A stretch of DNA of 64,000 nt from Bolinopsis microptera. Its lineage: Eukaryota; Ctenophora; Tentaculata; Lobata; Bolinopsidae. Below are positions 6,197 through 50,716 of this stretch, one piece after another; within the stretch, counting starts at the first letter, position 1, and each line of letters begins with the position of its first letter. The stretch covers positions 16,511,837-16,575,836 of the forward strand of contig NC_087073.1 of the NCBI RefSeq assembly GCF_026151205.1. Reading direction: 5' to 3'. The notes under the pieces are model-generated. The model saw nothing but the letters and a program-made list of their open reading frames with translations, searched no databases and was not told the origin of the DNA. The position numbers and the translations under genes were made by a program.

Positions 6197-6350
6197 TAGG
6201 CCTCCAAGGAGATAGGGATATATTAAAGTATATTGTAGGTATATTAAAGTATATTAAAGTATATCCCCGGGTCAAAATCGGGAAAAATCCTACATTTTAA
6301 TATACTTTAATATGGTTGCCCCCACCACCCCCCCCCCCCCCCCCCCCCCC
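6197..6350 (+). mobile_element. Hairpin repeat with poly-C end (family P), copy a
   Basis: After TAGGCCTCCAAGGAGATAGG come units of TATTAAAGTA, a centre with CCCCGGGTCAAAATCGGG, then the complementary AATATACTTTAATATGGTTG running into a C tract (6319-6350, interrupted by two As). The flanking arms can fold into a long hairpin. Relatives lie at 12846-12966, 28497-28642, 33683-33821, 33974-34075 and 34541-34657. There is no coding capacity. Here the left neighbour is the gypsy-like element rather than the ~300-bp sequence that precedes most relatives. Confidence 0.8.
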
Positions 6351-7334: not shown

Positions 7335-7349
7335 CGGTTCAAGCAGCTA

Positions 7350-9029: not shown

Positions 9030-12000
9030 GTCAAAAAAAAAAGGATCCCAAAAATTTTTTTTCAAAAAAAAAATCTTTTAAAAAAAAAGTGAATTTTGGG
9101 GAAAAAAAAAAATTTTTAAATCCCGGGAAATCTTTTTTTTAAATTTAAATTTTTTAATACATTTTACTTTACATTTTCAAAATTTTTTTAAACCCCCCTT
9201 ATCCCCCCAAAAAACCCTTTTTTTTAAATAAAAAATTTTTAACCAAATACCCAAAAATTTAAAATTTAAAAAAACAAATTTTTTTTAATCAATTTTTAAA
9301 TTTAATTTAAACCAAATAACTCTAAAATAAATTAAATTTCAAAGAAAGGGGAAGACCCCCTTGAGGAGGAAGAAAAATTTCCCCCTTTTTTCCCCCCCAA
9401 AAACCTTTAACCCCACCCCCTTTAAATTCCCCCTTTTCAAACCCAAAATTTTAAAATTAAAAAAAAACCCCTTTTATTTCCTAAATTTTTTAATAACATT
9501 TTCTTAAAATTTTTAAAATTTAAACCAACCCCCTTATTAAATACACCAAAAAAAAAAAAACTTTACCCTTTACACAAAAATTTTTTAAAAAAATTTTTAA
9601 ACCCCTTAAAAATTTTTTTCCCCTTATCACCCACGGGTTTTTAAAAATAAAAATTTTAATTTCGGCTCAACAAACCAAATCCCAAAACCCCGATTTTCCC
9701 CCCAAATACCTTATAATTAAAAGGTATAATCCCCCCTTTAAAAAATTTCCCCCTAAAAAATTCCCCCACCTTTTTCCCCAAACCCTCCCCCTATTCCCCC
9801 TCCCCCCCAAACCCTTCTCTACCCCCAACAACCCCCCCCCAAAAAACCCCTCCCGAAAATTATATCCGCAAAAATTGTCTACCACAACCAAATTCCCCCC
9901 CCAAATATTTCCCCCCCCCCAATATTCTCCCTTTCCCCCCCAATTTTCCCTTTCTTCCCCCAAAACAATTCCCCTTCCAAACCCAAATTTCTCCCCCCAC
10001 AACATTCTCCCCCAAAAATATTGGGTCCCCCCCAAAAATTCCACTCCCCAAAACCCCAAACATTCTCCCACCCAACTATTCCCCCTACCAATTTCTCTTC
10101 CCCCAACATTCCCCCCCCAACAAACTTTCCCCCCCCACCCCCAATTACCAAAATTTCCCCGACCACAAAAAATTCCCCCCAACCCCCCAAACATTCCCCC
10201 CCCCCCCAACAACCCCTAACCCCCAACAAAACCTTTTTCCCCCCCACAAACTTCCCCAATCCCCCCCAAACCCCCCCTTTCCCAAAAATATTCCCCCCCC
10301 ACAACCCCCAAAAACCCCCACCCCCCCCAAAAAATTCCTCCCAAACCACCCCCCCCCAAAAATTACAACCAAATTCTCCCCCCCAAAAACTTTCCCCCCC
10401 CACCAAAAACACCTCCCCCCAACTAATGCTCAAAACCGCGAACTATTGCCCTTAACCACGAACTTTTTCCTTTTTTTCCCCGAACCTTTTCTCTGAAATG
10501 ACGAACTGATTCTTTTCCCCCCCAAACTAAATTTTCCCCCCAAACCCCCCAACCCCCCCCCTCCCCCGTCCAGAATATTGTTGAGAGAAGTTTCATACCA
10601 CGAACCCCACTTCTCTTAGCCCCCCTAAAACCCCCTGGGCCACAAATTTTCTGAATCCCCCCCTTGCCCAAATTTTCTTGGCCCCCCTGCCTTTAATTTT
10701 CCTACCCGGAAAAAACTTCCCTTTTTAACCCCAAACCTTTTGCCCTTTCGGTAAAATTTTCACCCGCCCACCAAAGGGCACTTTTGGGTAAACAAAATCT
10801 CCTTAAAACTTTGCTTTCTTTTTTCACTTTCCCCTTGCACCCAGCCCCCACTCCCATCATTCTTTTCCTTGTTCCCTCTGGCGCAAAACCTCCGTTAAAG
10901 TAAAAACATAAGGATGGGGGTTTTTGGGAAAGATTTGGTTTCCCATGTATTTGCTGGTTTTTGGCAAAAAGTTTCCCTCCTGTACATTTGGGTAAAACTG
11001 TTTCCTTTTAAAAACCCCGGGCTATCTTTTTTTTAGGGTCAATCCCTGCAACCCCCGCTTTCCCCTTACAAACCCTTTTTTTCCCCTTGTTTTGTCTTAC
11101 AGCAATAGCCCTCCGTAATAAATATGGGGTATGGATAACACCCGGGACATTCGTTGGTGGGGTGGCTTCCCCCTTTTTGCAAAATGGTTTCGCTCTTGAA
11201 CCCCCCGATGGAGGGGCGCTTTGGGGTCATCTCTTCAGGTATTTTCCCACAGCACTCCTTGAGAAAAAAATGTGCTTTAAACAGGAAGACTTTTTAAAAA
11301 ATTAAAATTTTAACTTAATTTTTAAAAAAACCCCCCAAATGGGCCAGGCCCTTTTCGGTTTATATCTGTAGAAATTTTGTTTGCCCGATTTTTTTATCTT
11401 TCCCCCAAAATTTTTGGCCCCAAACTATTTCATTTGGAAAAAATCTTGCTTGGCTTATTAAAAATAAACCCCGTTTAAAAAGGTTTTCCAAGGGGGAAAA
11501 AGAACGACAAATAACATCCGTTTAGGTCCCTTTCCCCCCTTAAAAACCCCAAAAAATAAAAATCCCCTTTTGCTCTGGTTAATAAAACACCCCCCCCTCC
11601 CGATGGGCCCCCCATAATGTTTTTTTCCCCCGATCCCCCGAAAAATTTTAAACCCCAATTTTGGTACCCCAAAAAAATTTTTCTAAAAATGGGGAAAATT
11701 CTTTTTTACCAAAACCGGGTGGAAAATTTTTCCCCGTTTTCCAAATTTTAAAACCCTTTAAAAATGGAAAATTCTATTTTGTATTCCCTTGGTTTTTTAA
11801 TGATTTTTATGGGATTGGGTCGTTATGAGCTTGGTGACTGTTGCTTGTTGGGTTTTTGGGGGTGCGACGGTAGAGTGTAGGGGGGGGTGTAGAGGGAAAT
11901 GGAGGGCAAAAAAAAATAAACCAAATTTAAGGGGGGGGGGGGGGGGGGGGGGGGAACCATATTAAATATATTAAAGTATTCCCCGGGGCAAAATTGGGAA

Positions 12001-12048
12001 AAAAAAATACTTTTTAATTTTACTTTAAAAAAAGGGGTTTGGCCCCCC

Positions 12049-12086
<38 letters not shown>

Positions 12087-12460
12087 AAAGGCCGTGCTTA
12101 TTTCTTACGTTTTACTTGTACTTCGACGCAAAAAAAATTTAATATTTATATGTCATTGGCTTAAAAAACTACCTAATTAAAATTCTTTTTTTTTTTACTT
12201 TTTTTTTGGGGGCAATTTAAAGGGGGTTCCCCCGTGTTTAGCCAAGGGGGGGGGGGGGGGTTGGGGGGGGGGGGGGGGGGAACCATTTTTTTAAAAATAT
12301 TTTTAAAGGGATTTTCCCCGGGGCCAAAAACGGGAAAAAACCCCAAAATTTTAAAAACTTTTAAAATACCTCAATTAGAAAAATTTTTTTCTTTCGTTAA
12401 ATTTTCTTTAAAGAAAATTTATTTTTTCCCCTCAAAATTTGTGTTTGCAAGATAAGCCTG
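9030..12460. other. Corrupted consensus, counterpart of ~31320-34160
   Basis: Anchors such as AACACCCGGGACATTCGTTGG (first 20 bases, ~11129) and CTCTTCAGGTATT show this is the same locus as 31320-34160. Between the anchors bases are replaced by copies of their neighbours and homopolymers are inflated; long runs of C, G, A and T dominate. The Cys-rich gene (around 10700-11310), the 20-bp minisatellite (around 9870-10470) and two hairpin elements (around 11930-12085 and 12245-12375) can be located only roughly. The pattern fits an uncorrected low-accuracy read, not mutation. Reading frames here are meaningless. Confidence 0.85.
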
Positions 12461-12496
12461 TTTTAGGACTAGTACATGAATTTCCATCCAGATTGG

Positions 12497-12966
12497 TCAA
12501 AAATTGGCTGAGCTATGAGCTTTAAAAAATATGCCCATATTTGGGCATACGCTTTTGCCCAATTCGCTTTTGACCAAATTCGATAAAATTTCAATATTTT
12601 TTAATGAGACTAACTCTATGTGAAAGATATAACTCAGTGTTTGTTGAATATAGTGGATACTAAGTAAAAAGACCTCCATGAACAAAATTGGGAAAATTGC
12701 ACATAATATCTCGGTTCGGAATACTAGCCAAAATGACTTCATTAAAATTGAAATAACTCCATCAGTTTTCAATATTTTTTCAAGAACTTTTTGGAATAGA
12801 TTAATAATTGCATTTCAAGCTTATTTTGGGCAACAATTTTTGAAGTAGGCCTCCAAGGAGATAGGGATATATTAAAGTATATTAAAGTATATCCCCGGGT
12901 CAAAATCGGGAAAAATCCTACATTTTAATATACTTTAATATGGTTGCCCCCCCCCCCCCCCCCCCC
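12497..12966. repeat. Composite repeat R1 plus hairpin family P, copy b
   Basis: About 350 bases (R1, 12497-12845, containing CTCGGTTCGGAATACTAGCC) are followed by a family-P hairpin (12846-12966) ending in a 20-base C tract. The same composite stands at 34160-34657 (its duplication partner) and 28200-28642 (outside the partner relation), so R1 is an interspersed repeat in its own right. A ~70-91 codon minus-strand frame in R1 is present in all three but matches no family I know. Confidence 0.75.
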
Positions 12967-17390: not shown

Positions 17391-17925
17391 CCTCGGTTGT
17401 ATGAAGATGGGTCCTACCAAAAGATCAACATCTTCTTGTGGTACTCCTTTAGTACATCAATGTAGTGTACTGTTAACATAGTACTATACTACAATATGCA
17501 TGTACAGGGAGTTCCCAATTTTCAGCTGAGAATGCTCAATTCAATATATACATGAAACTCTGCTACTTTGGCCAATCAGGTTAGGTACCTAAGTGGACAT
17601 TCCAACACCACTCACCAGTGCGCCGGGTCAGTGTTGGACTGCCTTAGGATGTGTTCAATGAAACAATAAGTTTTGAATGAATGAAATACCTGACAATCTA
17701 CACTCCTATAAAAATTAAAAAAGCATGAGTAACTCGTAGTGATTTATGATTTCTAAAAACTTTAAATTAAACTTGGCGCTCACAGGTCCTCATGATCATG
17801 TGATCGCCGCATGAGGTTCTGTAAATGCGCAGGGCACCTTCGAGCTTATATTATTCACCTTACTGAGGCAGTCAACCAACGCGCAGCTTTATTTTTATGA
17901 TATGATATGTTTTGATTGTTATTAA
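17391..17925. other. Non-coding stretch
   Basis: No gene recognised. Matches 42150-42670 of copy 2 apart from the private insertion at 42005-42148. Confidence 0.6.
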
Positions 17926-17927
17926 TA

Positions 17928-19355: not shown

Positions 19356-19357
19356 TA

Positions 19358-20704
19358 AATACCAAAATTTAAATTTGTTTTCCTAAAAAAAATTTGTTTT
19401 CCTTTTCAATGAAACAATAAGTTTTATTTTACATTCCTTTCATAAATAAAATAAGAGCTTAAACCACGAATTAGTTAACTAGAAGTAAACTTGAGGAAAT
19501 ATTCTTTAGTGGTTGTATATAATTATTTAAAAAACTTTATTTGTTAGATCCCAAAGAAGCCCCATCCTCTGCTTTATCTCAGTAGCAGCATGAGCCCTGG
19601 TTTCCTGCCATATTGAAGGTACAGGTACGGTAGTGGATTGAGGGTACCAAGATCTTCCCTGTTGAGACACTTCTTCAAGATACCGACATCCCTCTTTTGG
19701 ATATGTGCCAAGGGTCGACACTCAACATTGTAGTTCCTTGATGATTCTCTAATGTAGAATTATTATTATTATTATTCTAATGTAGCTATGATTATTGTTC
19801 ATGATTGAAAACTTGATAAACCGGATAAAACTATTGTTAAAAAAAGTAAAGGAAAGTGGAGCAAAATGTATTCGACATTACATTATCACACATCTATGCA
19901 AAGTAGCATCAAACTATAACATGATAAAAAGTCAAATACAATCAAATACAATTTGAATAAATATTACCTTGTATACATTATAATTGAAATGAAATAAAAT
20001 ACAGTATGTTTATCCTGCTTACATCAACACTCAAAATTAAAATAAAGATTGCCGATGTCGAAGAAGCCTTACAACATACTCAAAAAACTAGGTACTCAAT
20101 TTGTGAATGTGATAGTAAAAAATGTAAGAACCAAAGTACTTTATTTGACATAAAAATTGTATCACACATGCGCTGCTTATCACTCATTATTATATATCAC
20201 TCACTTTAATATCTTATTCTCACAAAAAAAATTACCACTTCACTTCTGATATAATAATGTTTATTTTTGTCTACTTTGGCTACTTTGGCTATCTGTTGAC
20301 GAATAGCTTGATCTTCAGGTGATCGATCTGGAGAAATGAAAACAGGTTTATGATCTTGACACAGTCTCAGTTTTCAGATATTTACAAATATCTGATGAAC
20401 GGTACTAGAATTACCTAGCGAACTTATAGTCTATCCAGTTTATCTAGCCCTTTCTCTGTCACTTACTTAACAACAGTAGAACTGTTACATACAGTTTTGC
20501 CTCAGTATGTGGACTACAATATTGGGTACAATTTGGCTGTGCCTTCTTTGTTCATTATTTGAACCAGTAGTTTTCTATCATTGTGGCATCTAAAACAAAT
20601 CTTTTTAAATCTACATTTTTCTAATCTTCAACCCTTGAATAGAATGGAACTGAAAGTTATCATGTGAGTTTATCAAGATAGAATGGAAACATACGACCGG
20701 CAAG
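19358..20704. other. Non-coding stretch upstream of DCAF12-like copy 1
   Basis: AT-rich with no recognised gene. A 64-codon minus-strand frame (19527-19721) is kept in copy 2 but has no recognised match. Any 5' UTR exon or promoter of the DCAF12-like gene should be here but cannot be pinpointed. Confidence 0.5.
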
Positions 20705-28199: not shown

Positions 28200-28642
28200 T
28201 TAAATAACCCAAATTCGCTTTTGCCCAAATTCGATGAAATTTCAATATTTTTTAATGAGACTAACTCTATGTGAAAGATATAACTCAGTGTTTGTTGAAT
28301 ATAGTGGATACTAAGTAAAAAGACCTCCATGAACAAAATTGGGAAAATTGCACATAATATCTCGGTTCGGAATACTAGCCAAAATGACTTCATTAAAATT
28401 GAAATAACTCCATCAGTTTTCAATATTTTTTCAAGAACTTTTTTGAATCGATTAAGAATTGCATTTCAAGCTTATTTTGGGCAACAATTTTTGATGTAGG
28501 CCTCCAAGGAGATAGGGATATATTAAAGTATATTGTAGGTATATTAAAGTATATCCCCGGGTCAAAATCGGGAAAAATCCTACATTTTAATATACTTTAG
28601 TATGGTTGCCCCCACCCCCCCCCCCCCCCCCCCCCCCCCCCC
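28200..28642. repeat. Composite repeat R1 plus hairpin family P, copy c
   Basis: R1 (28200-28496) and the adjoining hairpin with C tract (28609-28642, one interrupting A) repeat the arrangement at 12497-12966. The hairpin portion from 28497 is also the start of segment copy 2, partner of 6197-6350. Confidence 0.8.
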
Positions 28643-29072
28643 AAATAATTATTACCTATTTAATTCGCGTTTTTGACACCACTTGGGAGTCTAAATTTTG
28701 GGCACTAAAATTCTTATTCCTTGGCCAATTTTTATTTTTCATGCTGATTTGAAGGCCACTAAAGCATTTGACCCACTCAACAAAAGTTTCAGTTGTATAT
28801 CTTTTACGGTTTTTGCGGAAAGTCGCGTTAAAGTTGATGCCGTGGTGTCAGTAAAATGGGACGGATCCATCCATCGATATATACATATATATATCGTCTC
28901 GCTTTATATATAGTAAGATAATGGACGATAGTTTAGTCAAACTAAACTGGTTATCTGAGACATAATAATTTCGCAATGAAAGCTCCGATTATAAGATTAC
29001 AAGAATGCCTCTGTAGTTAACTCGCCAGTCCAAACGCTCCTATTCTGGACTAAAAATGTCTTCCATGAGAGC

Positions 29073-29390
29073 TAAATACCTCCTCTACTGCAGACTGAAC
29101 AGCTCTATTCAAAAAGTATCACTCCTCCAGATGAATAGTCCTCAATGCCAGCTCGTTGCTTTTAGCCATTATTAGCAGATCAACACAGGTTATTACCTCC
29201 TCAGACCTTAACAAGCTTGGATGATAATTTAGTGAAACTCAACTGATGATCTTAAACATCATTCTTTCTCAATGAATATTAATATTCGTTCATATAAGCT
29301 GACATTGAGGACTATTCATCTGGAGAAATGACACGTTTTGAAGAGAGCTATTTAGTCTGCAGTAGATTGAGTATATCTCCTGTTAAATAC
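29073..29390. repeat. Imperfect ~85-bp inverted repeat upstream of MFS copy 2
   Basis: Partner of 6779-7095, with the same arms around CTCCAGATGAATAGTCCTCA and only scattered substitutions. Confidence 0.7.
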
Positions 29391-29643
29391 TGTTCACGAC
29401 GCCTAAACACTATTGTCTTAATACTTATAAGCAAAATAACCCTCGATCCTCATGGAGCTACTAATTCGCTTGTTTAATACAGCGTACACGCTAATTTAAT
29501 ACCAGCTGATCAGTTATATTGATTATTCATGTAAATGTTGTTAAAGATGATTTGTCCTTTCTATTCGCTTGTATGCTTTATATCGGCCATAATATCTTTA
29601 ATAAACGGCCATAATATCTTTAATAAACCGGTTCAAGCAGCTA

Positions 29644-31015
29644 ATGCGTTTTCACTCAGAAATATTATTTAGGAAAGAAGCATCCTGTAATATAATGTCC
29701 GACGTAAAGGATGTAGCCATGAAATCTTTTTCCACCTCCGCTTGTGATTCCTCAAGGTCCCACTTATGGACTAAACAGGATTACCTTCTAGCCTCGCTGG
29801 CAGTGCTGATAAATATTGGTGATGGTGTTGAAGCTTTTCTCCCTGGAGTCATTACTCAGACAGTATCATGTGAACTTGGTCTATCGGACTTTCAAGAAGG
29901 AATCCTAGCTGTGATTATGTTTCTGTTTTGGGCAATCGCAACTATGATTTCAGTCCCGATTTCAAAAAAATTAGGAGAAAGATTTACAATGCTCTTGTCA
30001 CTATCTGTCCATTGGCTTTGCTATCTTATGTGCAGTGGTTCCCAACTATTACACCCTCCTCCTCTCTAGAGCTTTGATCGGTATCTGCGTTGGATTGAAC
30101 TTTTGTGCAATCGGGATATCCCTCGCCAAGCTCGTTTCTTCTAAAGAAGTTCATACTCAAAGCTGTTTTCTTTCAACACTTGGTTTCGCAGTTGGAGGAA
30201 CTTGGGTGTCGTTACTAGGATGGATGATTCTAGACATCGTGAACTGGAGAGTCTTCGTTCTGCTGACTTCTATCCCACTTTTTGTTCCTCCAATCATCAT
30301 TATTCACTTGTTTCTCAATGAAAAGCCCGATGGAGTAGAAGAAGGAGATAACGAGTCTGTGGTAGAGATTTATACTGTTCCAACCGAATCTGACGGACTC
30401 GTCGACAAAATGCCACAAAATATCCCGAATTCTAATTATACCATAAGAGTCTTCAAAGCAAGTCTATTTCTTTTCTCCAGCATGTGCTCTGGGTTCGGAT
30501 GCATTATTCTTGTTCCGTGGTTGATGAGAAGCTATAAGAAAGATCTTGTTCACGATACCGAAAATGGAAATTGCGAGGAAGTGGTGCAAGGTGACGATTT
30601 CCTGATTCTAGCGGCAGTAACTGGTGCAACCAACCTCGTAGGGCGACCACTAGGGTATTTTCTATGGAGTCGTGTAAAGTTCTTGACCCTGCAATCTACA
30701 ATCACAGCCATGATGGCTCTGAGTTACGGTTTTGTACTGGCAAAACCTGGTATCGTAGCTTCAGTGATCCTTCTCGGATTGGCAAAATTATGTTACTCTA
30801 TACAGTCTACAGAAACTAGAATACTTTTATATGATTACGACTACTACGGAAATTCTGGATTTGAGTTGGGAAGTGCTGTGACTTTAGCCTCAGGAGTGAT
30901 TGGAGCCGTGGTGGGCACATCTCTAGCTGCATTCCTCGATCCTTTTGCTGCAATATTGATCACCTTAGTGATAGTGGGCGTCGAGCTCGTCGTCATCTGC
31001 GTCTTAAGGAGATAA
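29644..31015 (+). pseudogene. MFS transporter, copy 2 (internal 2-base deletion)
   Basis: Same gene as 7350-8738. At ~30000 the sequence reads TTGTCACTATCTG where copy 1 has TTGTCACTCTATCTG. The loss of two bases shifts the frame inside the third membrane segment, splitting the gene into 29644-30069 and 30035-31015. Downstream of the break the protein is intact to its natural end, including the last membrane segment (AAILITLVIVGVELVVICVL) that copy 1 has lost. Thus each copy carries what the other lacks. It is a pseudogene if the deletion is real; a base-calling slip or haplotype difference is equally possible. Confidence 0.82.
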
Positions 31016-32130
31016 AGGAACGATTTTAATAATTATTATGGGACATATTCAAATATTGGTTATATATAACTAGTAGTTATAGTCGTAGCTTCTTTATTAT
31101 TATCATAACAATAATTGTACCTTATTATGGTAACAATTTGGTGGTACCTTTTAAATGTTTTCAACTAGTAATTATCTATAATACTATATTTTAAACTTGA
31201 CAAAATCTCCCCAGCAACCGGGAAAATTGACCAAAAAATGACCCTTCTTTGTAGTCAATTTCAGCTCGTAAATGGTGTTAGAACCAAAAATTCAAATTGT
31301 CGAAACATTCTGACCAAACTGTCAAAAAAAAAGGATCAAAATTGTCAAAAAAACATCTTTCAAAAAATAGTGAATTTTGAGAAAAAGAAAATAGTAAATC
31401 GGGGCGCGGTAAATCGGGGTTTTACTGTACATTGTATTTAAATACAGTCGACTGGGACATGTTTCATATTGTAGACCCTTCCTTAGTCCTGAATTAAACA
31501 GTTTTTGTTTTTATCAGTTTTTTAGACTTAGGTCACCAAATTAGACTTAGATGTTATCGTTATTTATCAAGGTCAATTGTAATTGGGTGAATTGTAGTAA
31601 CCATAGTAACGTCTGAAGATTGATGGAGAGTCCGGTTCACAAACATATGGATTATTTGACGCCCTGAGCCGAGCAAGAAATTCCTTCGTGAGTCTACAGT
31701 AACCGTGGTTATCCCAGCAACTGTAGATTTCATTTTCTAGTAACCGTATTTATTTTAACTGTGGTGACATGAGCATTGTTATTGTGCCGTATGTTATGTA
31801 GTGATGCACATTTCGTGTTTAGTTTTATTATCAATTATTAAACACTTGGATGAATTTTGTATAAACTATAATTATAAATAATAAACTTTACGTGTCCTCA
31901 GCTATATTAATTTAGTTTTTATAATCATATTTAAATTCTTTTCCGCTTATTGTTTTCAACCTGTATCACCAGGCAGCTGAAATTGATATCTGAAGTAAGG
32001 TAAACATTTTATTTGGCGAAGGCTCAACGAAGACCGGAAGATCCGGCGAAAACCCGGCGATTTCGACAAATACGCTTATAATAGGGATAATACGTGATAA
32101 GGTAAACGTTTTACTTTTGCCTACTGATAG
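31016..32130. other. 3' flank of MFS copy 2
   Basis: AT-rich, no gene recognised. Provides the reliable version of the first part of the corrupted block in copy 1. Confidence 0.55.
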
Positions 32131-32568
32131 TGCCGCGCACTTTTGCTCTGAGCCGTGCACTATTGCTCTGAGCCACGAACCATTGCTCTGAGCCACGAAC
32201 CATTGCTCAGAGCCACGAACTATTGCCCTGAGCCTCGAACTATTGCTCTGAGCCGAGAACTGTTGCAGGTTGCTCTGAGCCACGAACTATTGCTCTCAGC
32301 CACGAACTATTGCTCTCAGCCACGAACTATTGCTCTCAGCCACGAACTATTGCTCTCAGCCACGAACTATTGCTCTGAACCACGAACTTACGAACTATTG
32401 CTCTGAGCCACGAACTGTTGCTCTGAGCCACGAACTATTGCTCTGAGCCACGAACTGTTGCTCTGAGCCACGAACTACTGCTCTGAGCCGCGAACTATTG
32501 CTCTGAGCCGTGCATTATTGCTCTGAGCCGTGCATTATTGCTCTGAGCCGTGCATTATTGCTCTGAGC
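32131..32568. repeat. Minisatellite, ~21 units of 20 bp
   Basis: The unit CACGAACTATTGCTCTGAGC is repeated head to tail about 21 times. Variants are ordered along the array: CGTGCATTATTG units at the right, a run with CTCTCAGC in the middle, and two longer irregular units (about 32241 and 32386). It abuts the 3' end of the Cys-rich gene. The long plus-strand frame through it is a by-product of the repeat, not a gene. Confidence 0.9.
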
Positions 32569-32583
32569 CAGGAAGACTCTTAT

Positions 32584-33186
32584 TTACCTACCTTCTGCTT
32601 TCTGGTAGTTTTCACACGTCCCACAAGGACACTGGGTAAACACATCTCCTTCACAACACGTGCTATCTTTTTCTAGCTCACTCCCATTGCACCCAGCTCC
32701 ACTCCCATCATTCTTTTCCTTGTTCGTCTAGCAGCAATAACCTCCGTTAAAGTAAGCATAAGGATGGGTTATTGTGCATCGATTCGGTTGCCTATGTATT
32801 TGCTGGTTGTTGACACAGTTCCCTCCTGTACACTGGATAAAACTGTTTCCTTCACAACACGTGCTATCTTTTTCTAGCTCACTCCCATCGCACCCTGCTC
32901 CGCTTACACCATTATTTTCCTTGTTCGTCTTACAGCAATAGCCTCCGTAATAGTATGCGTATGGATAACACCCGGGACATTCGTTGGTGATGGCTTCCCT
33001 CTTCGCAAAATGGTTTCGCTCTTGAACAGCCCAGATGGAGACTGCTTTTGGTGTCATCTCTTCAGGTATCTCGACAGCACTCTCTTGAGAAATATGTAGC
33101 TGAAACAGGAAGACGAGTATTATCTTCATGTTCAGCTTCATTTTAGGAACATCCAACTGAGGCCGAGGCCCTTTTGACGTAGTCAT
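32584..33186 (-). CDS. Secreted cysteine-rich repeat protein with in-frame TAG
   Basis: From an ATG at 33186 (or the third Met, MKLNMKII, which better starts a signal peptide) the frame gives a hydrophobic leader (IILVFLFQLHIS), a short pro-region, and a Cys-rich module: CPGCYPYAYYYGGYCCKTNK followed by CDGSELEKDSTCCEG and CTGGNC. A second module begins (HPYAYFNGGYCC) but meets TAG at 32728-32730, where module one has AAG (Lys). Past the stop the homology continues without a gap (TNKEKNDGSGAGCNGSELEK, then DSTCCEG, CPCGTC) to a TAA at 32584-32586. So the stop interrupts an otherwise intact second repeat. It may be a nonsense allele, an error or readthrough. The copy-1 version is unreadable. 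I do not assign a function; the modules are extracellular in style. Confidence 0.65.
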
Positions 33187-33682
33187 ATCTGTAGAATGGT
33201 GTTAGTCAGATTTATTTTTTATCTTGTCAATTTTAGGCAAAGCTATTTCATTTGGAAAACTCTTGCTTGGCTTATTCATACATAACAGTTAACAAGGTGT
33301 CCAATGGGGATATAAGAACGACAAATAAACATCCGATGCAGGTCCGGTGACCACTTATATCAGAACATAAAAATACCTTCTGCTCTGGTAATAAGCACCA
33401 AAAGATGGCACATAATGTTTTTCTCTCCGATCGCGATTTTAATAAATTTGGTACAAAAAATTGTCTAAAAATGTAAATAACATAATTTCACCGTGAAATT
33501 TGCTGTTTTCCACTTTTAAATCTGTAAAGCTGTAACTTCTATAGTATCAGTTGGTTTTTAAATGATTATTATTGTATTGGGTCGTTATGAGCTTGGTGAC
33601 TGTTGCTTGTTGGTTGTTAGAGGTGCGACGTGTAGAGTGTAGAGTGTAGAGGTAATGGAGGTCAAAAAGAATAAACAAATAA
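33187..33682. other. 5' flank of the Cys-rich gene
   Basis: No other gene recognised. Promoter and 5' UTR of the minus-strand gene should lie here. A splice-acceptor-like CATTCTACAG directly precedes the start region on the minus strand, so a 5' UTR intron is possible. Confidence 0.45.
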
Positions 33683-33788
33683 GGGGGGGGGGGGGGGGGG
33701 GGGGGCCAACCATATTAAAGTATATTAAAGTATATCCCCGGGTCAAAGTTGGAAAAAAACCTACATTTTAATATACTTTAATATGGTT

Positions 33789-33821
<33 letters not shown>
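33683..33821. mobile_element. Complete hairpin element (family P) with poly-G and poly-C ends, copy d
   Basis: G(23), then CCAACCATATTAAAGTATAT, a short centre with CCCCGGG, then AATATACTTTAATATGGTTG, then G and C(31). The whole unit is one inverted repeat whose outermost arms are homopolymers. It is flanked on both sides by AAATAAG (left just before the Gs, right just after the Cs), a 7-9 base target duplication that shows it moved as a unit. No coding capacity. Confidence 0.82.
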
Positions 33822-33823
<2 letters not shown>

Positions 33824-33973
33824 ATAAGGCCGTGCTTAGTGCTTACTGTTTTACTTGTACTTCGACGCAAAATTGAATATCATATGTCATGACTTAAAAA
33901 CTACCTAATTATATTCTTATTTTTTACTTTTTTGTGGACAATAAGGTGGTTCACCGCTGTTTAGACCAGAGTT

Positions 33974-34075
33974 GGGGGGGGGGGGGCAACCATATTAAAG
34001 TATATTAAAGTATATCCCCGGGTCAAAATCGGGAAAAATCCTACATTTTAATATACTTTAATATACCTACAATTA
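33974..34075. mobile_element. Hairpin element (family P) with poly-G left end only, copy e
   Basis: G(13), then CAACCATATTAAAGTATATT, CCCCGGGTCAAAATCGGG, then AATATACTTTAATATACCTA. The right arm changes after ATAT and has no GGTTG or C tract, so it is truncated or recombined relative to 33683-33821. Confidence 0.75.
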
Positions 34076-34159
34076 GAAGATTTCTATTCTTCGTTAAGAT
34101 TTACATGATGAACTATATTTTTCACTCATATTTGCTGTTTGCAAGATAAGCCTGTTTTA

Positions 34160-34657
34160 GGACTAGTACATGAATTTCCATCCAGATTGGTCAAAAGTTG
34201 GCTGAGCTATGAGCTTTAAAAAATATGCCCATATTTGGGCATACGCTTTTGCCCAAATTCGCTTTTGACCAAATTCGATAAAATTTCAATATTTTTTAAT
34301 GAGACTAACTCTATGTGAAAGATATAACTCAGTGTTTGTTGAATATAGTGGATACTAAGTAAAAAGACCTCCATGAACAAAATTGGGAAAATTGCACATA
34401 ATATCTCGGTTCGGAATACTAGCCAAAATGACTTCATTAAAATTGAAATAACTCCATCAGTTTTCAATATTTTTTCAAGAACTTTTTGGAATAGATTAAT
34501 AATTGCATTTCAAGCTTATTTTGGGCAACAATTTTTGAAGTAGGCCTCCAAGGAGATAGGGATATATTAAAGTATATTAAAGTATATCCCCGGGTCAAAA
34601 TCGGGAAAAATCCTACATTTTAATATACTTTAATATGGTTGCCCCCCCCCCCCCCCC
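34160..34657. repeat. Composite repeat R1 plus hairpin family P, copy f
   Basis: Partner of 12497-12966. R1 runs to 34540; the hairpin starts TAGGCCTCC at 34541 and ends in a 16-base C tract (34642-34657; 20 bases in copy 1). Confidence 0.78.
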
Positions 34658-35970
34658 AACCCTTTATGATGAGAAATACTTCTCGTTTGAATTTGATACC
34701 TCACAATACGATACCTCTTTCATTTTACGGAGAGTTCAGATTTATTATAAAGTCCGTTTCCTTCAGTGTGCCGTTGGAGTTGGCATCCCCACTGCCAAAA
34801 CAAAGCCTCCTACGCATGCGTAAGTATTGTACATAATCTTCCCTAATCTTGCATTGTGCAACTTTAATTTCACTTCGTCGATTTTTAAATTTGTAGATTG
34901 ATCAGATCAACTTGAGTGTCTCCCAAATTTTATTTTTTGTCTCTAAAATTTAACTAGCTCCTCTCACAGCCGGTGAACAGAAAAGAGATAACACCTGCAG
35001 TAATTGTAACGTGCAGAACAAACGCTTCCTGAAAATCGTGAAACCTACTCCCGCTCTTTTCCCAGAGATTTTAGATGAGATAAGAAATTTCCTATTGGAC
35101 TATTTGATGACATGACCAATTAGTCTTGTGTTGGGGTTTAAGACTGTTAAATATTTTGTATTGTAATTGTGTTTTGCCAATTTTTGTTTTTAGTTGCGAT
35201 ATTTTTAACGACATGCTATGCAGATAAATTCAGGGGATAACCCATTATATTGCAGCATTAACTGTATTATTGTTTTTATTCAATAGCTACGACTATTTGC
35301 ATTGGCATGAATTATCAGATTAACTTATATTCGGAGTTTGGACTAAAGTCAAAATCACTCGTGCTACAATCGTGACTGAAATTAGAATTTAATTGGTATG
35401 AATCTCTTTTATATCAAAAGGTTTTGAAAATCAGGTAAACTCTTGCTAACAATTGTATTTTAAATTTTCGTCCTTTGGGCCATTACTTATTACTTATGTT
35501 TACTGGGACGTCATTTTTGGGAGGACAGTTTCGGTAAATTCCTATGAACTATTTGTGTATATAATGTTAGTGTTTTAGATCATAGATATCTATTTTAGAT
35601 ATTTGCTTTATCTCTATCATCTACTTGCTACTATGGTGCCAGAATCTGAATGAGTTAAACTTAAAGCTTCTTGTGCGATGAGGTCAGAGGTAGAATTTGA
35701 TAAAAATTTGACAAGTGCTTTCGTTATACTTTTAAAGTAATTGCAGTGTTGGTATCAAAACTGATTTTAATAACATTAACAGGAAGATCACGGGCAACCC
35801 TGAAATGTTTTTGCCATAACACACAAGTTTGAATATAATATTAATTGTCATCTCCGAAGTTAAATATTGTTGTTTGTTGTTGAGTCCTCACGACCTAATT
35901 AGTTGTCTAATTTGTTGGAACTGAAAATGTATTTGTTGAATCAGAATTTAAGCTGCTTGATTATGATTAA
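34658..35970. other. AT-rich non-coding stretch
   Basis: Partner of 12967-14279. Nothing recognised. Confidence 0.55.
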
Positions 35971-37140
35971 CAGTGCAGGCGCGGCGCTCTTTTCATGCAG
36001 TGTGAGAAGCAAGCTAGGTAAGATCATGGTTCCTAGCGACATGTAGTCAGATCCCTCGAGCACGCACAGTGCTTTATATTATAGTGTTTGGTTGATACAC
36101 GTAACTTTCTATACCACTTTTTGCGCGCGAAAAGAGGTACACAACGTGGAAAAACACTAAGACGGCCCCGCCCCAGGCTAGTTATTGGTTGTAGCGCGAT
36201 TTGTACATTGTAGGTTAATAACCTACCAAGACGCGCGCCGAGTTGGACTCGTTGACGGTCTAATATTTGAAATAAATATTTTACGAGTATCACCTGTTCA
36301 AACGCGCGCGATGCGCTACTTCATACTTTTGACTTTGCCGCGCATCCAACAATCCTTTACTTCTCGCAACAGCCATTCGTTAGATCGGCGATGCGCTACT
36401 GCGGCCTCGCCGAGCTATGAAGAATATATTTGTATCACGTGGTGACCCCCACTGTCGCTTCACTATTAGTAGAGTTGACGAGTTGTAGAATTTTTCACCT
36501 GTAGAGTTTCTACGATACAGGATTCACATAGCCATGTGTATACACGTACTGCGTGACGCGCTTGTTTCACAACAAGCGGTCGCGCGCTACTGCAAGCGAG
36601 AGGGCTCTGGTTAGAGCAAGATACAGGAGGAGCCGCGCACTCGTGCGCGGCGGGTCATACAACGTATGATCATACAACGTATGATACACCTGGTTGATAC
36701 AAAAGTGATAATTACTTTATTGAGTATAATAACACAATAGTTGTTATTCCGAAATAATTTAAGTTACACAATTTTAATTATTTGCAAATGTGTAGGGATA
36801 ATTTAGAAATTTTATATAATACTATATTTGATATTGTACTAGTTTAAAAAATAAATAATCGAGTTTGTATTTTAAGGACCTATAGTAATATTTAATTGAC
36901 GAAACCAATTCTTCGCAGCTCGGTGAGGCCCAATAGCACATTTCGTTAACGGGTGATACTCGTAAAATATTTGTTCCATATATTGGGGACCGTCGACAAG
37001 TCCAACTCGGCGCGCGTCCTGGTACATGGTAGGTTGTAACAACCTACAAACATTTCGCCGATCTATCGAGGTTGTTGTTGCGAGAAGCATAATTGAGTGC
37101 GCAGCGCGGTCCAGTAACGCATCGCGCTACAATAGCACTA
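35971..37140. repeat. GC-rich island of repeated and inverted modules, copy 2
   Basis: Partner of 14280-15590 without the 128-bp insertion. CATACAACGTATGAT is doubled near 36655-36685 relative to copy 1. Confidence 0.6.
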
Positions 37141-37631
37141 TGCACTTGCTAGTATGTAGTATTTGAATGGAAATCTGGGCTTTTAATACATATTATAGGC
37201 TGTATATTGTTCGTTCACAAAGAAAACAACAATTTCAAGAAAACAACAATTTTATTTAGTATCAATTAAAGCAGACAAAAATATATTTCATATATATATA
37301 ACTAGCACGAACTTTAGATCAGATATCTTAGGGGACTTGGAATAGCAAGAGATTGACTAAAAGGTATATAACTTTTACAATGATACGTCGAGAAGAATCC
37401 AGGGTGATACAGGATCGGAGAGTGCAGACCAAAAGTTTACGCACCCACCTTTGCCTCCTGAGTTCTTGGTTGGGTAGAAATTTATGCAAACTTGGTCGTT
37501 TATACTCCAAGTCCCTTTCTTAAAAGAAGTAGTATTAACTATGTCTAGAGTTAGCTTCGTTCAATAATAACAATATCAATATAATCAATATCAATACCAG
37601 ATAAACCTACCGAATAAATTATTAAATATCA

Positions 37632-38294
37632 GAGCTATTAGAAACTGCTGGCTGTAAAGATGTTACCACTGAACCTCTCCTCATTCCTGTCAACGGGAGA
37701 GAACTTCCTGCAGGGGCCAACAAAGCAGATGGAGCTAGATTAGATGTTAGTGCTAGGAGTGTATGGAACCCATTGGAAAGGGCATTTTTAGATGTAAGAG
37801 TATTTCATGCTCAAGCTCCTTCCAATAAGGCTCTTGGATCTCCAACCACTATGTACAATAGCCACGAGAGACAGAAAAAGAATTTATACAATAAAAGGAT
37901 TGTAGAAGTGGAACATGGGACGTTTACACCGATAGTCCTATCAACCACTGGGGGTATGGGAAGGGAAGCTAATAAGTTCTTCAAGAAATTAGCGGATAAA
38001 CTTTCTAGGAAATCAGGCCAACGATATAGTGAGGCAATGACATTTATTAGGAAGAGAGTAAGATTTGACCTTTTGAGAACAACAGTCATAGCTCTTAGAG
38101 GAGAGAGAGGGTTAAAAAGTAGTAGTGCAGTAAAAATAGCAGAATTAGATATAAATTTGGAGCCAGTTCTTTAAACTGGCTTACTTATACTACTTAAAGG
38201 GTGTTTATTTAGTTTTCTATTGAATTTATATTGAATTTTTATATAGGGTAATTGTTATATTATGTGTATATTGTTTGAATCTTACTCTCTTTTT
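37632..38294 (+). mobile_element. 5'-truncated retroelement fragment with C-terminal ORF
   Basis: Absent from copy 1. It is bounded by direct repeats TTAAATATCA (37622-37631, 38295-38304), a ~10-base target duplication. From its first base a frame is open to a stop at 38174 (about 180 codons, no ATG at the 5' end, so truncated). It contains KADGARLDVSARSVW, then AFLDVRVFHAQAPSNKAL, EVEHGTFTPIVLSTTGGMG and RVRFDLLRTTVIALRGER. I recall this conserved C-terminal block from retroelement proteins common in cnidarians and sponges. The spaced D and DxR residues would suit a restriction-like endonuclease fold, which is inference. An AT-rich 3' tail of ~120 bases ends in a T run, with no poly-A. Confidence 0.7.
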
Positions 38295-38587
38295 TTAAAT
38301 ATCAATTAATTCATTCCGATAAAAAATTTTATAGATTTAGATATTTAACTTATCTAAAAACATTACAACAAATGTTTAAAAAGCGCCCAAAATCGATTTG
38401 AAAGATTTTCTGTCTATAGTACAATCATGATAGTAATAGTAAGTGTGTGCCGCTGCAATTAGATTTGATTACTGCAATTTAAAATTGTTTGGAGTCCAAG
38501 TATCTTTTAAGTCAGCTGCCTGTGCTTGTATTAATAGTGCTTTGGTTCTCAGTTTTATCAAGCTAATGGACGTTTCTAAGCAATTGC

Positions 38588-41018
38588 CTCATATGACGAT
38601 GTGCCTCTATTTTTACTTAAGCAAGCTGTACCACACATAGTTGAGCCACTGACCCATATTGTCAATTTGAGCCTTAATACAGGTGTTGTACCAACACTTT
38701 GTAAAAAAGCTAGAGTAACTCCCATCCATAAGGCAGGAATGAAAGATGATCCTAATAATTACAGGCCAATATCCATCCTTCCACTTGTAGGAAAACTTAT
38801 AGAATACTTTGTCGGCAAGCAACTCACTGATTACATGGAAGAGAACAAACTTTTCATCCGGCATCAATATGGCTTTCGGAAAAATCACTCCACAACTTAT
38901 TTGATGTACGATCTGATGGACGAAATATATATGAGTAAATCTAAGTCTTATAAACCAGGAATCATCTTTCTTGATCTTAAGAAGGCCTTTGACACAGTGA
39001 ATCATGAAATATTGCTTCAAAAATTGGCATATTATGGAATTGGTGGCATTGCTTTAACCTGGTTTAAGAACTTCTTATCTTGTAGATATCAATGCACTAG
39101 GATCAATGGCAAACTAAGTTCATTTTTAGAAGTTCTGAGTGGTGTACCACAAGGAAGCATCATTGGGCCTATATTATTTAGTATCTTCATAAATGACATC
39201 ATTTATGCCTGTAACCTATCTAAGCCCTTTCTATTTGCAGATGATGGTGCACTATTCTTTGATCAAACCTGCAGAAGCACATTTATAAACATGAAAATAG
39301 AACTTATGACAATCTTTAAATGGCTCAGTGTAAATAAATTATCACTCAATGAAAAGAAGACTGAATTCCTATTGTTTGATTCTGTTGATCAACATGATGA
39401 ATTAACCATTGAATGTAATGAGGTAACTTTCACAATCAAGGAGTGCAAAGAGACAAAATATCTTGGCCTCATTCTAGATAGTAAATTAAACTTCAAAAGC
39501 CATGTAGATTATATTATTAAGATGGTCATGAAGAGAATTGGTGCCATGTATAGAAGTAAAGCACTGCTACCCATTAAATATAGGAAAATGTTTGCCAATG
39601 CACTCATGTTGCCACAATTCGATTATTTAGACACGATCTATTGTAGAGCTGGCAAGACAAAACTTGCTGAACTTGACACTCTGTACAAAAAGGTAGCCAA
39701 AATAGCTCTCAACGTTCCACAAACAGAGAGCAGCCTTAATGTTTATAGAGACATGAAATGGTTACCACTCCATCTTAGACGGCAACTCCATCTGTCAAAT
39801 TATATGTTTAGAATCATCCATGACAATTGTCCTACAAACTTTATGAACAAATTTAGTTACATATCAGGAGGTAGTAGGAGCGGCGAAAGCTGCAACCTAT
39901 ATGTTAATAGATCAACATCACATGAAAACTTTCAATACTTGGGGGCAAAATGTTGGAATAATGTTCCAACAGATCTACGAAATCTGCCCGATGTTAAAAG
40001 CTTTAGTGATTCGTATAAGAAACAGTTACTCTCATCTATAACAACAGACCCTAATTATACCGTCGACAATTCATATGACAAATTTTACACTGCAATCATA
40101 GTCGACGATAACTAAGTATCTTCTAATTCTTTTAAATCTGAGGCATATATAATTGATGTATCGAAAGGATTTTCCCTTTTTTACCACCTTACCATTTTGA
40201 TTGATTTTGCACATGACTGACATGTTTTAACTGGAGAAAGGGTTCGCACAGTGGTAGTTTTATAAACCACTTTTAATTTATTGACCTATTATACCTAGTT
40301 GTAGTTTTATAGACCACATTTAATTTATTTACTTATTATACTAAGTATTTATTTTTGGTGACTGTATCACCCAGTTTTAACATTTGATAATTGTACAGTT
40401 TATTGACGACACATTGACTGAATGTTATTTTATATTCTAATTTATATTCTAGATATTTTATTTATTTTTCAACAGACGACAACTTCCTGTTTTTTCTTCT
40501 ATATTAGTTACTCATATCTCTTTTACAGACTTTTTTACAAGGACATTGACAGATGATACTCACATTAGGCATTCATTATTGCATCTAAATTATTTCACTT
40601 GCATTAGGTTTAGAAATTTATTCTCTGGTTAACAGATTTCAAATGTTTAATTAATTTGTAGTATGACAGTAAGGTATATAAGAAGTTATTTAATTTTGCT
40701 TGGGCTATTATATTGACTATTGAGGTTTAATGATGATATGGAATTTGAATTCTATATAAATTTACACTATGTGGTTGGGGCATTTTGCATAGTAAATATG
40801 GTTACTACTCCTATATATCATATTATTTGATTGGTATTCGATTTCTGATTATTTCTCTAGGAATATGATTATTATATCTCAATTTGGCTTTAGGTAGGGT
40901 GCCCCGCTAAAAGAACTGGATTCTTCCAGGAAGCATCCCGTGCACAGACCTTGGTCTACATATATAATATTAAATGATTAACCATTCATTCTGTATGTGC
41001 ACGAAAATTTATTTCAAT
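38588..41018 (+). mobile_element. 5'-truncated LINE (Jockey/CR1-like) insertion
   Basis: Absent from copy 1. Flanked by CAATTGC on both sides (38581-38587, 41019-41025). The truncation starts within the RT frame. A long 3' region follows the stop (40116-41018) without a poly-A tail; its last bases are GAAAATTTATTTCAAT. With an intact frame and an empty site in copy 1, this is a recent insertion. Confidence 0.88.
38590..40115 (+). CDS. Non-LTR retrotransposon reverse transcriptase, N-terminally truncated
   Basis: The frame is open from the insertion junction (YDDVPLFLLKQAVPHI...) to a TAA at 40113-40115, ~508 codons. RT blocks in order: HKAGMKDDPNNYRPISILP, QYGFRKNHSTTYLMYDL, IIFLDLKKAFDTVNHEILLQ, GVPQGSIIGPILFSIFINDI, catalytic FADDGALFF (~39235), then the thumb-like LSLNEKKTEF and KYLGLILDSKLNF. 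A C-terminal region follows (CPTNFMNKFSYISGG ... WNNVPTDLRNLPDVKSF). The endonuclease and ORF1 are missing through 5' truncation. Block style fits the Jockey/CR1 superfamily. The frame has no internal stop. A cellular start codon is not expected; GTG at 38601 is not meaningful. Confidence 0.9.
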
Positions 41019-41118
41019 CAATTGCTTGAAGTTAAAATTCAAGCAAAAAAGAACTGAATGGATCGCTCTTGCTGTGGCAGTAAATTTGTTAGGCTCTAGA
41101 GTTTTGTTGGAGAGCAGA

Positions 41119-41381
41119 CCGGGCGCTTTACTAGGTCAGTGATGTTTTGGGGATGGAAGTTTAATTTTTTGCTTTACTGAGGAGTAAAGGAAACAGTCTA
41201 TTAATACGTGATTTTCGTCCTCAATAGGCTTGAGCCCTTTGCTAAAAAGCAGTAAGTGCTCCAACGTTCTTCTCTTAGTACACTGTATATACAAGGGGGG
41301 GTTTCGTATCTGTCCCTTTCGACGTAGAGGTTGTGCTGTGGCAGCTGATATGTGATACGAAACCTTGTCAAGCTTTTTCAA
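41119..41381 (-). pseudogene. LINE ORF C-terminal remnant, copy 2
   Basis: Partner of 16461-16735, with the same IEDENHVLIDCFLY motif. Here the internal G tract is only 7 bases and the frame continues through it, so the tract expansion in copy 1 broke an otherwise open stretch. Confidence 0.4.
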
Positions 41382-42004
41382 ACATCAGCTATTTTGATCA
41401 TTCGTAGATGTGCCTCTGGTTCAAAATCATGTTTAATTGGATAACAGAATTTAAGTTTTGGCGAGGAGGTATTCACGAATTCTTCCCTCATGTTATGACT
41501 GATTTGGGCGGAGAGCTTAGATTTTGAGGAAGATGAGTGGTGAAACTTGTATTTGGTGAGAATCAACACATTCATTTTTCGAGGGTGTCTATCCTTATAG
41601 CTAGACAATTACCATTGCTAAAATTATCTGTATACTGTTCGAAACATTTTTGGTCAGGTAGATTTGCTTACGTAAATTTTGTAGATATTTTACTGTACTA
41701 TTTTATATTGTATACAATTTTACGGACGAAATGATCCCAGGGGGGACTCCTAACCCACCGCTTCGGCTGGTAGTTGATTCACCGATCACAAGCAAGAGCC
41801 CCCCCCCTTTTTTTTGTTTTTGTAAAAATCAACACATCTGTGCAATATTTCCTCGAGTTTTCAAAATGTGTGCCATTTTTATAACTTCTAATCCATTGTA
41901 TTGGTTTATTCATTTTTCGAGGGTGTCTATCCTTATAGCTAGACAATTACCATTGCTGGAATTATCTGTATACTGTTCAAAACGTTTTCATATCTCCTCG
42001 GTTG

Positions 42005-42148
42005 ACTCAGTCGAATGATCAGGGGACCTTGATTTAGGGTTGTATTGACACACGTTGTAGACCTGCTGCACACAAGTGTGCAGCTGTATCGTGGCTTTTG
42101 CCACGATAGTGAAACGACAATGGGGTTCACGACGTGATACAAGGGTTG
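42005..42148. mobile_element. ~140-bp insertion private to copy 2
   Basis: Copy 1 reads TCCTCGGTTGTATGAAG. Copy 2 has 144 extra bases after GGTTG, ending in a second GGTTG (42144-42148), a possible 5-base target duplication. Internal palindrome CACACAAGTGTG and GTGGCTTTTGCCAC. No clear terminal inverted repeats; class unknown. Confidence 0.6.
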
Positions 42149-43502
42149 TATGAAGATGGGTCCTACCAAAAGATCAACATCTTCTTGTGGTACTCCTTTA
42201 GTACATCAATGTAGTGTACTGTTAACATAGTACTATACTACAATATGCATGTACAGGGAGTTCCCAATTTTCAGCTGAGAATGCTCAATTCAATATATAC
42301 ATGAAACTCTGCTACTTTGGCCGATCAGGTTAGGTACCTAAGTGGACATTCCAACACCACTCACCAGTGCGCCGGGTCCGTGTTGGACTGCCTTAGGATG
42401 TGTTCAATGAAACAATAAGTTTTGAATGAATGAAATACCTGACAATCTACACTCCTATAAAAATTAAAAAAGCATGAGTAACTCGTAGTGATGTATGATT
42501 TCTAAAAACTTTAAATTAAACTTGGCGCTCACAGGTCCTCATGATCATGTGATCGCCGCATGAGGTTCTGTAAATGCGCAGGGCACCTTCGAGCTTATAT
42601 TATTCACCTTACTGAGGCAGTCAACCAACGCGCGGCTTTATTTTTATGATATGATATGTTTTGATTGTTATTAATAAATACCAAAATTTAAATTTGTTTT
42701 CCTAAAAAAAATTTGTTTTCCTTTTCAATGAAACAATAAGTTTTATTTTACATTCCTTTCATAAATAAAATAAGAGCTTAAACCACGAATTAGTTAACTA
42801 GAAGTAAACTTGAGGAAATATTCTTTAGTGGTTGTATATAATTATTTAAAAAACTTTATTTGTTAGATCCCAAAGAAGCCCCATCCTCTGCTTTATCTCA
42901 GTAGCAGCATGAGCCCTGGTTTCCTGCCATATTGAAGGTACAGGTACGGTAGTGGATTGAGGGTACCAAGATCTTCCCTGTTGAGACACTTCTTCAAGAT
43001 ACCGACATCCCTCTTTTGGATATGTGCAGAGGGTCGACACTCTACATTGTAGTTCCTTGATGATTCTCTAATGTAGAATCATTATTATTATCATTCTAAT
43101 GTAGCTATGATTATTGTTTATGATTGAAAACTTGATAAACCGGATAAAACTATTGTAAAAAAAGTATAAAGGAAAGTGGAGCAAAATGTATTCGAAATTA
43201 CATTATCACACATCTATGCAAAGTAGCATCACACTATAACATGATAAAAAGTCAAATACAATCAAATACAATTTGAATAAATATTACCTTGTATAGTATA
43301 CAAGGTAATATTTATTCAAATTGTAATGTATTCAATTATATTAATGTATACAATGTATACATTATAATTGAAATGAAATAAAATACAGTATGTTTATCCC
43401 GCTTACATCAACACTCAAAATTAAAATAAAGATTGCCGATGTCGAAGAAGCCTTACAACATACTCAAAAAAATAGATACTCAATTTGTGAATATGATAAT
43501 AA

Positions 43503-50397: not shown

Positions 50398-50716
50398 GGG
50401 GGTACCAATGGCATAAATGGCATACGTTTTATGTCATAAATGGAAATTTTTATTGGCCAATTCTCCATTTATGCCATGAATTTAGGTCTTCATATTTGAC
50501 TTTAAATTCGCAAATTATTATTAGTACTTGAATGAGAGACATGTTTCATGCTTTATAACGCTTGGAATGATCGTTAAAGATTCATATGACAAATAAAGAA
50601 AATAGAAATGTATTATATCATAAATGGCATACGTTTTATGGCATAAACGGAAATTTTTATTGGCCAATTCTCCATTATGCCATTTATGCCATTGGTACCC
50701 CCCCCCCCCCCCCCCC
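50398..50716. mobile_element. 319-bp hairpin element with G/C-run ends, second family
   Basis: Begins GGGGGTACCAATGGCATAAA and ends in the complement TTTATGCCATTGGTA followed by C(19). Each half also contains CATACGTTTTATG and GGAAATTTTTATTGGCCAAT in the same direction, so the element combines inverted ends with an internal direct repeat. Flanks GCCCTTAG and GCCCTGAG may be an 8-base target duplication with one change. Unrelated in sequence to family P, but with the same homopolymer-capped design. Confidence 0.75.

What the first reader, a model, noticed from the sequence alone, without database searches (positions are those of the whole stretch)
33683..33821. Hairpin elements capped by long poly-G and poly-C (family P)
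The complete copy is G(23)-CCAACC...GGTTGG-C(31): the outermost part of the inverted repeat is a homopolymer. It is flanked by a 7-9 base direct repeat (AAATAAG), so it transposed as a unit. Five relatives in the window share the core and at least one G/C cap, and cap lengths vary. I know no described MITE family whose termini are G/C homopolymers in an AT-rich genome. The caps might be recognised by the transposase, copied by slippage, or form quadruplex/i-motif ends.
Basis: partly seen in the sequence, partly recalled or inferred. Interest (0 to 1): 0.8.

Follow-up and report, generated by a model that had tools for sequence, protein, structure and literature searches.

The report
Mobile DNA with poly-G tips
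Hundreds of small, non-coding jumping DNA elements in this genome start and end with a run of G/C that arrives with the element at roughly nine bases and seems then to stretch by copying slippage, as G runs do elsewhere in the same genome, so the striking caps are real but probably a side effect of an ordinary process.

Summary
The hairpin is the shortest form of a MITE-like family (P): 477 exact 18-mer ends genome-wide. Of 245 exact reverse-strand ends, 230 have eight or more G within six bases; in 80 loci plus the window I judge two ends genuinely uncapped. The target duplication is 6 bp, not 7-9: 37 of 66 pairs have exactly 6 and 56 of 66 have 5 or more (shuffled pairs about 2%), consensus AAWWTT. 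For one insertion, ten of ten unfilled sites read have a single AATTTT and no G run there, so its caps came with the element. Cap lengths pile up at 9-10 (30 of 153), range 5-59, differ between duplicate copies of one insertion, and follow neither divergence nor relatedness. G runs lengthen elsewhere too: 9,557 tracts of 18 or more; a dispersed repeat's G6 is G8, G21 or G27 in the copies lacking an interrupting A. No autonomous partner was found. Best reading: MITEs whose terminal repeat starts with about nine G, lengthened by slippage. Assembly error in homopolymers is not excluded for individual lengths.

The parts
33677..33682 (+). left target duplication AAATAA of the reported hairpin
   Evidence: read directly; 6-bp length from the family
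33683..33705 (+). left cap, G23
33706..33790 (+). 85-base hairpin core CCAACC...GGTTGG (solo form of family P)
33791..33821 (+). right cap, C31
33822..33827 (+). right target duplication AAATAA
33974..34657 (+). full-length A-type P copy, caps G13 (33974-33986) and C16 (34642-34657), no target duplication
28209..28642 (+). truncated P copy keeping the right end, cap C28 (28615-28642)
6197..6350 (+). second copy of that right end, cap C23 (6328-6350)
11931..12084 (+). second, poorly resolved copy of the reported hairpin
12246..12966 (+). second copy of the 33974-34657 element; left part in the poor stretch, right cap C20 (12947-12966)
50398..50716 (+). member of another G-tipped family (Q): G5-TA-CCAATGGCATAAATGG ... 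TA-C19

Best explanation
Family P is a set of non-autonomous, non-coding DNA transposons (MITE-like) whose terminal inverted repeat begins with about nine G followed by C(C)AACCATATTAAAG. Shown: insertion duplicates 6 bp of AAWWTT; caps are nearly universal; in one insertion with readable unfilled sites the caps came in with the element; cap lengths differ between duplicate copies of the same insertion in this assembly; long G runs also occur in varied lengths outside these tips. Inferred: an unseen transposase or integrase cuts at or within the G run with a 6-bp stagger; replication slippage then stretches the run, commonly to 12-30. The 85-base hairpin is the solo form left when the middle of a full element is lost between the directly repeated hairpin units at its two ends (inferred); it could instead have moved on its own.
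For: 230 of 245 exact reverse-strand ends capped. Target duplication of 5 or more bp in 56 of 66 pairs, exactly 6 in 37; shuffled pairs about 2%. Unfilled sites of the L034/L035 insertion: ten of ten read have one AATTTT and no G run there. Lengths pile up at 9-10 (30 of 153), median 18, range 5-59. Duplicate copies differ: L038/L039 9/22 and 10/15 with no substitution between the interiors, L034/L035 15/16 and 23/21; window C23/C28 and C20/C16. Growth away from these tips: seven of ten repeat copies with CAGGGGGG have G6, the three without the A have G8, G21, G27; 9,557 tracts of 18 or more. Hairpin unit directly repeated at both ends, 73 of 73 bases.
Against: No transposase or autonomous copy was found. 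In A-type copies cap length does not rise with divergence (rho -0.03, n = 48) and the three least diverged have long caps (25/13, 18/30, 22/27); growth in place fits only if slippage is far faster than substitution. In C. elegans one tract per chromosome was found unchanged in length between two strains (PMC2211496, passage), which speaks against very fast change there. Homopolymer lengths are prone to assembly error, so differences between duplicate copies may be partly technical. Ten of 66 pairs have no usable target duplication, including the full window copy. Only two solo forms were in the sample, one (L002) without a duplication. Unfilled sites were read for one P insertion only.
Confidence: 0.7

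Rival explanations
1. The poly-G tip is a required signal: the transposase needs it, as sequence or as a quadruplex/i-motif, and resets it to about 9-10 G at each jump, so the caps are functional and not merely tolerated.
For: Two uncapped ends in the sample; lower edge with 30 of 153 caps at 9-10 and 4 below 9; the less diverged B-type has 10 of 14 caps at 11 or less against 27 of 96 in A-type (Fisher p 0.004); no sign of inheritance of cap length among related A-type copies (Mantel rho -0.07, p 0.83, 46 copies).
Against: Simply being part of the terminal repeat explains near-universality. The three least diverged A-type copies have long caps. No excision or binding data.
Confidence: 0.2
2. 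The caps are untemplated C tails added to the 3' ends of a free linear copy before integration (tailing by a polymerase or reverse transcriptase).
For: Each strand ends in C at its 3' end; lengths vary independently at the two ends (rho 0.08, n = 48).
Against: Tailing predicts a spread from zero; only 4 of 153 caps are below 9 G and the mode is 9-10. The same tip architecture with shorter runs (4-7 G at 15 of 18 R ends) looks templated.
Confidence: 0.06
3. P inserts into pre-existing poly-G/poly-C target tracts.
For: The genome is rich in such tracts.
Against: Ten of ten unfilled sites read lack a G run; the target is AT-rich, AAWWTT, and duplicated outside the caps.
Confidence: 0.01
4. The long caps are mainly an assembly artefact.
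For: One stretch of the window (about 9.3-12.5 kb) is clearly homopolymer-inflated; homopolymers are error-prone.
Against: Caps are present at ends on all sampled contigs, also where neighbouring A/T runs are not inflated: outside that stretch the window has 10 G/C runs of 12 or more and no A/T run of 12 or more.
Confidence: 0.04

Closest known systems
[quoted passage not shown]
   Same: Short, non-coding, hundreds of similar copies, terminal inverted repeats, target duplications, types that share ends but not middles (A and B).
   Different: The terminal repeat starts with a homopolymer that becomes very long; no superfamily could be assigned.
Polinton/Maverick
   Same: 6-bp target duplication (PMC10045372, passage).
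   Different: No polymerase or integrase in any P copy read; five pieces near polymerase genes of this genome hold no G run of 7 or more; the AG start of Polinton ends is recalled, not from a call.
IS3EU / GingerRoot
   Same: 6-bp target duplications (PMC10045372, passage).
   Different: Their termini are TA..TA, occasionally TG..CA (same passage); P ends in G..C.
Poly-G/poly-C tracts of Caenorhabditis (PMC2211496; abstract, outline and passages seen)
   Same: Large excess of long G/C homopolymers over expectation (396 of 18 or more in C. elegans).
   Different: The main text never uses the word transposon (0 occurrences); here part of the tracts are transposon tips. Tested C. elegans tracts were constant in length between two strains.
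MuTAnT, Mutator-like elements targeting TA microsatellites (PMC4486113; listing and start of abstract only)
   Same: A MITE-like family next to simple sequence.
   Different: There the simple sequence is the target; here the G run comes with the element.

Membership tests
MITE / non-autonomous DNA transposon | terminal inverted repeats | tested here: met
MITE / non-autonomous DNA transposon | target duplication of constant length | tested here: met
   6 bp: 37 of 66 exactly, 56 of 66 with 5 or more
MITE / non-autonomous DNA transposon | short, non-coding, many similar copies | tested here: met
   477 exact ends; 48 A-type copies on average 1.13% from their majority sequence; no long reading frame seen in L008, L001, L012
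MITE / non-autonomous DNA transposon | an autonomous partner with the same ends | tested here: inconclusive
   none among the 80 sampled loci or L106-L108; the rest of the genome was not screened
Polinton/Maverick | 6-bp target duplication | tested here: met
Polinton/Maverick | same ends as an element with protein-primed polymerase and integrase | tested here: inconclusive
   20 PF03175 matches; five pieces near them hold no G run of 7 or more, but the ends of those elements were not located
IS3EU / GingerRoot | 6-bp target duplication | tested here: met
IS3EU / GingerRoot | TA..TA (or TG..CA) termini | tested here: not met
   P ends are G..C; the base outside the cap is T in 124 of 153, but it is duplicated with the target (termini)
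IS3EU / GingerRoot | transposase of that family | not tested
   no autonomous element found

The most novel reading that the evidence does not exclude
DNA-transposon tips seed and spread poly-G/poly-C tracts. Three families in this genome have G-run tips (P with 6-bp, Q and R with 8-bp target duplications); their transposases may require such a tip and reset it to about 9-10 G (P) at each jump, after which slippage grows it. P tips alone would be roughly 3-5% of the tracts of 18 or more G (my estimate: 477 to 972 ends, 79 of 153 sampled caps at 18 or more, 9,557 tracts) although the elements cover about 0.1% of the genome (estimate). This offers a testable origin for part of the excess of such tracts known in Caenorhabditis.
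Probability: 0.2. Interest if true: 0.55.

Novelty: new variant of a known kind. Interest (0 to 1): 0.38.

Why it matters
It shows a transposon end that is a variable homopolymer in hundreds of copies that evidently moved, and gives many insertions on which G-run change can be measured. If such tips really seed poly-G tracts, the excess of these tracts in some genomes gets a testable origin. As a mechanism it is otherwise ordinary.

Tried and rejected
Polinton origin through sliding-back of a protein-primed polymerase: attractive because of the 6-bp duplication, but five pieces near the PF03175 genes (15.8 kb) contain no G run of 7 or more; three of them lie in head-to-head palindromes. The ends of those elements were not located, so the link is unsupported, not excluded.

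Autonomous partner: longer P-ended stretches proved to be nested insertions or composites (L001, L008, L012). Two end variants (L106, L107) and the 1.4-kb pair L108 are P copies without long reading frames of their own that I could recognise.

Cap length as a clock: no correlation with divergence in A-type and no relatedness signal.

'Family S' (G15-CCAACATGG beside L034) looked like another tip but is a resident G run of a dispersed repeat. 'Family T' (L109:180-1537) rests on one copy.

That it is an animal is my impression from the reading frames, not a result.

Literature: (listings only; one search found nothing) showed no title or abstract start that describes homopolymer-G transposon tips. 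One search (passages of PMC1852546) showed its 6-bp duplication belongs to a non-LTR element. Subscription papers and Repbase were not searched.

Full report
Observation. The reported hairpin is in the sequence as described: G23, an 85-base core, C31 at 33683-33821. The core is a strong hairpin. Its 20-base arm occurs at 602 places with up to two mismatches, against 2 for the reversed pattern; a 28-base arm at 972 places with up to three mismatches, reversed control 0. The window lies in an unnamed 264.65-Mb genome of 232 contigs.

Anatomy. The hairpin is the smallest member of a family (P) whose usual form is about 620-680 bp between the caps. I read 80 loci on contigs C1-C5, chosen from the core matches listed without regard to caps; not every listed place was taken, and exact core matches favour well-kept ends. 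Among 66 capped pairs (window included) 51 are A-type, 9 B-type, 2 solo hairpins, 4 others. A and B share about 106 bases at one end and 110-120 at the other. In the full window copy the hairpin unit is present at both ends as a direct repeat, 73 of 73 bases identical; the solo hairpin matches 74 of 78 bases at each end. Loss of the middle between these repeats would give the solo form and keep the target duplication. That step is inferred.

Caps. Genome-wide, 230 reverse-strand ends have at least eight G within six bases of CAACCATATTAAAGTATA, out of 245 exact reverse-strand matches; the forward count is inflated by overlapping starts and is not used, and the 15 others were not looked at as a set. 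Lengths run from 5 to 59, median 18; 30 of 153 are 9-10, 41 of 153 are 11 or less, 4 are below 9.

Target duplications. Of 66 pairs, 37 have exactly 6 bp, 12 have 5, 6 have 7, 1 has 8 and 10 have two or fewer; mismatched pairs give 5 or more in about 2%. The 37 six-base duplications read AAWWTT; positions outside look near background by eye. The full window copy is one of the ten without a duplication, as are both members of the L038/L039 duplicate.

Unfilled sites. The flanks of the L034/L035 insertion are a dispersed repeat. The joined flanks matched 40 scored places, 38 of them over all 143 bases (the tool scored 40 of 1,723 candidates). I read ten: all have one AATTTT at the site and no G run there, while L034 and L035 have AATTT(T)-cap...cap-AATTTT with caps 15/16 and 23/21. 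This is one insertion (L034 and L035 are duplicates). For family Q, L056 sits in a P copy at AATTGCAT, duplicated, where another P copy (L027) has the site once.

Why the caps are long. Duplicate copies of one insertion differ: L038/L039 9/22 and 10/15; L034/L035 as above; window C23/C28 and C20/C16. Cap length tracks neither divergence (48 of the 51 A-type copies, those of 550-720 bp; rho -0.03; the two ends are uncorrelated, rho 0.08) nor relatedness (46 copies after one of each duplicate pair was dropped; Mantel rho -0.07, p 0.83). Runs of other places behave alike: in the dispersed repeat seven of ten copies have CAGGGGGG with six G, and the three without the A have 8, 21 and 27 G. There are 9,557 tracts of 18 or more, 36 per Mb, against 396 in the 100-Mb C. 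elegans genome (PMC2211496, passages). The first 100 listed tracts lie in the first 2.62 Mb of C1, before the first exact P end there (3.87 Mb). P should supply roughly 3-5% of tracts (estimate; 79 of 153 sampled caps reach 18). In the window itself the share is high: 8 of 10 G/C runs of 12 or more outside the poor stretch are P or Q tips, with no A/T run of 12 or more.

Results against this reading. The least diverged A-type copies have long caps, while the B-type (7 of 9 copies measured; mean divergence 0.52% against 1.13%) has 10 of 14 caps at 11 or less against 27 of 96 (p 0.004). Ends with a single C inside the cap are rarely short (4 of 47 at 11 or less), CC ends often (36 of 91; p 0.0001). 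These leave room for resetting by a transposase or source-specific lengths, which I cannot separate. One tract per chromosome was constant between two C. elegans strains. Assembly error may contribute to differences between duplicates; the poor stretch of the window shows that the assembly can inflate homopolymers. After the recount I set confidence at 0.7 instead of 0.75 for these two reasons.

Other G-tipped families. Q (CCAATGGCATAAATGG...; 168 places with up to one mismatch, reversed control 1): of 12 loci and the window, both ends were found in 4; three have 8-bp duplications, one of them (L059) inside a tandem repeat, the window copy none exact. R (...GCAACGACCATTAATG; 244 places with up to two mismatches, control 0): 4-7 G at 15 of 18 ends, the rest longer or interrupted; of 10 measured pairs five have exactly 8 bp, two have 7 or 8 depending on a tip G, three none. 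An R copy has a 465-residue open frame without a Pfam match or a meaningful PDB match (best E 1.8) and 95 matches in the genome, a lower bound. P's 6-bp duplication argues against R's protein moving P. No P transposase was found.

Verdict. A real MITE-like family with an unusual tip. The caps enter with the element and seem then to be lengthened by a tendency that this genome shows at other G runs. Membership in a named superfamily is not established: the 6-bp duplication is shared with Polinton and IS3EU/GingerRoot (PMC10045372, passages), but IS3EU/GingerRoot termini do not match and no Polinton link was found.

Noticed in passing
window 6197-19975 and 28497-43295: Near-duplicate segments (five of seven matching blocks 98% identical or more); an uncollapsed second haplotype or a recent duplication.
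   Followed up: partly
window about 9300-12500: Poor stretch with inflated homopolymers (38 C runs of 6 or more, against 1 in 31.0-34.2 kb); looks like an unpolished consensus.
   Followed up: partly
L044:568-1962 (minus strand); 95 matches genome-wide: Transposon family R (elements up to about 3 kb, mostly 8-bp target duplications) has a long open frame with no Pfam match at E up to 10; probably a transposase of a poorly described group.
   Followed up: partly
L061, L062, L063 (contigs C9 and C7): Polinton-type polymerase matches occur as outward-facing pairs around long near-perfect palindromes (L062 is 99% self-complementary over 3.07 kb).
   Followed up: no
L109:180-1537: A 1.3-kb stretch with tips G9/G11-CCAATGGATATTTT and a possible TTAA duplication; perhaps a further G-tipped family, one copy seen.
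   Followed up: no
L111-L120: A dispersed repeat in which copies with CAGGGGGG stay at six G while those without the A have 8, 21 and 27: a natural test of a threshold for G-run growth.
   Followed up: partly
window 16620-16643: A G24 tract with no P, Q or R end beside it; origin unknown.
   Followed up: no
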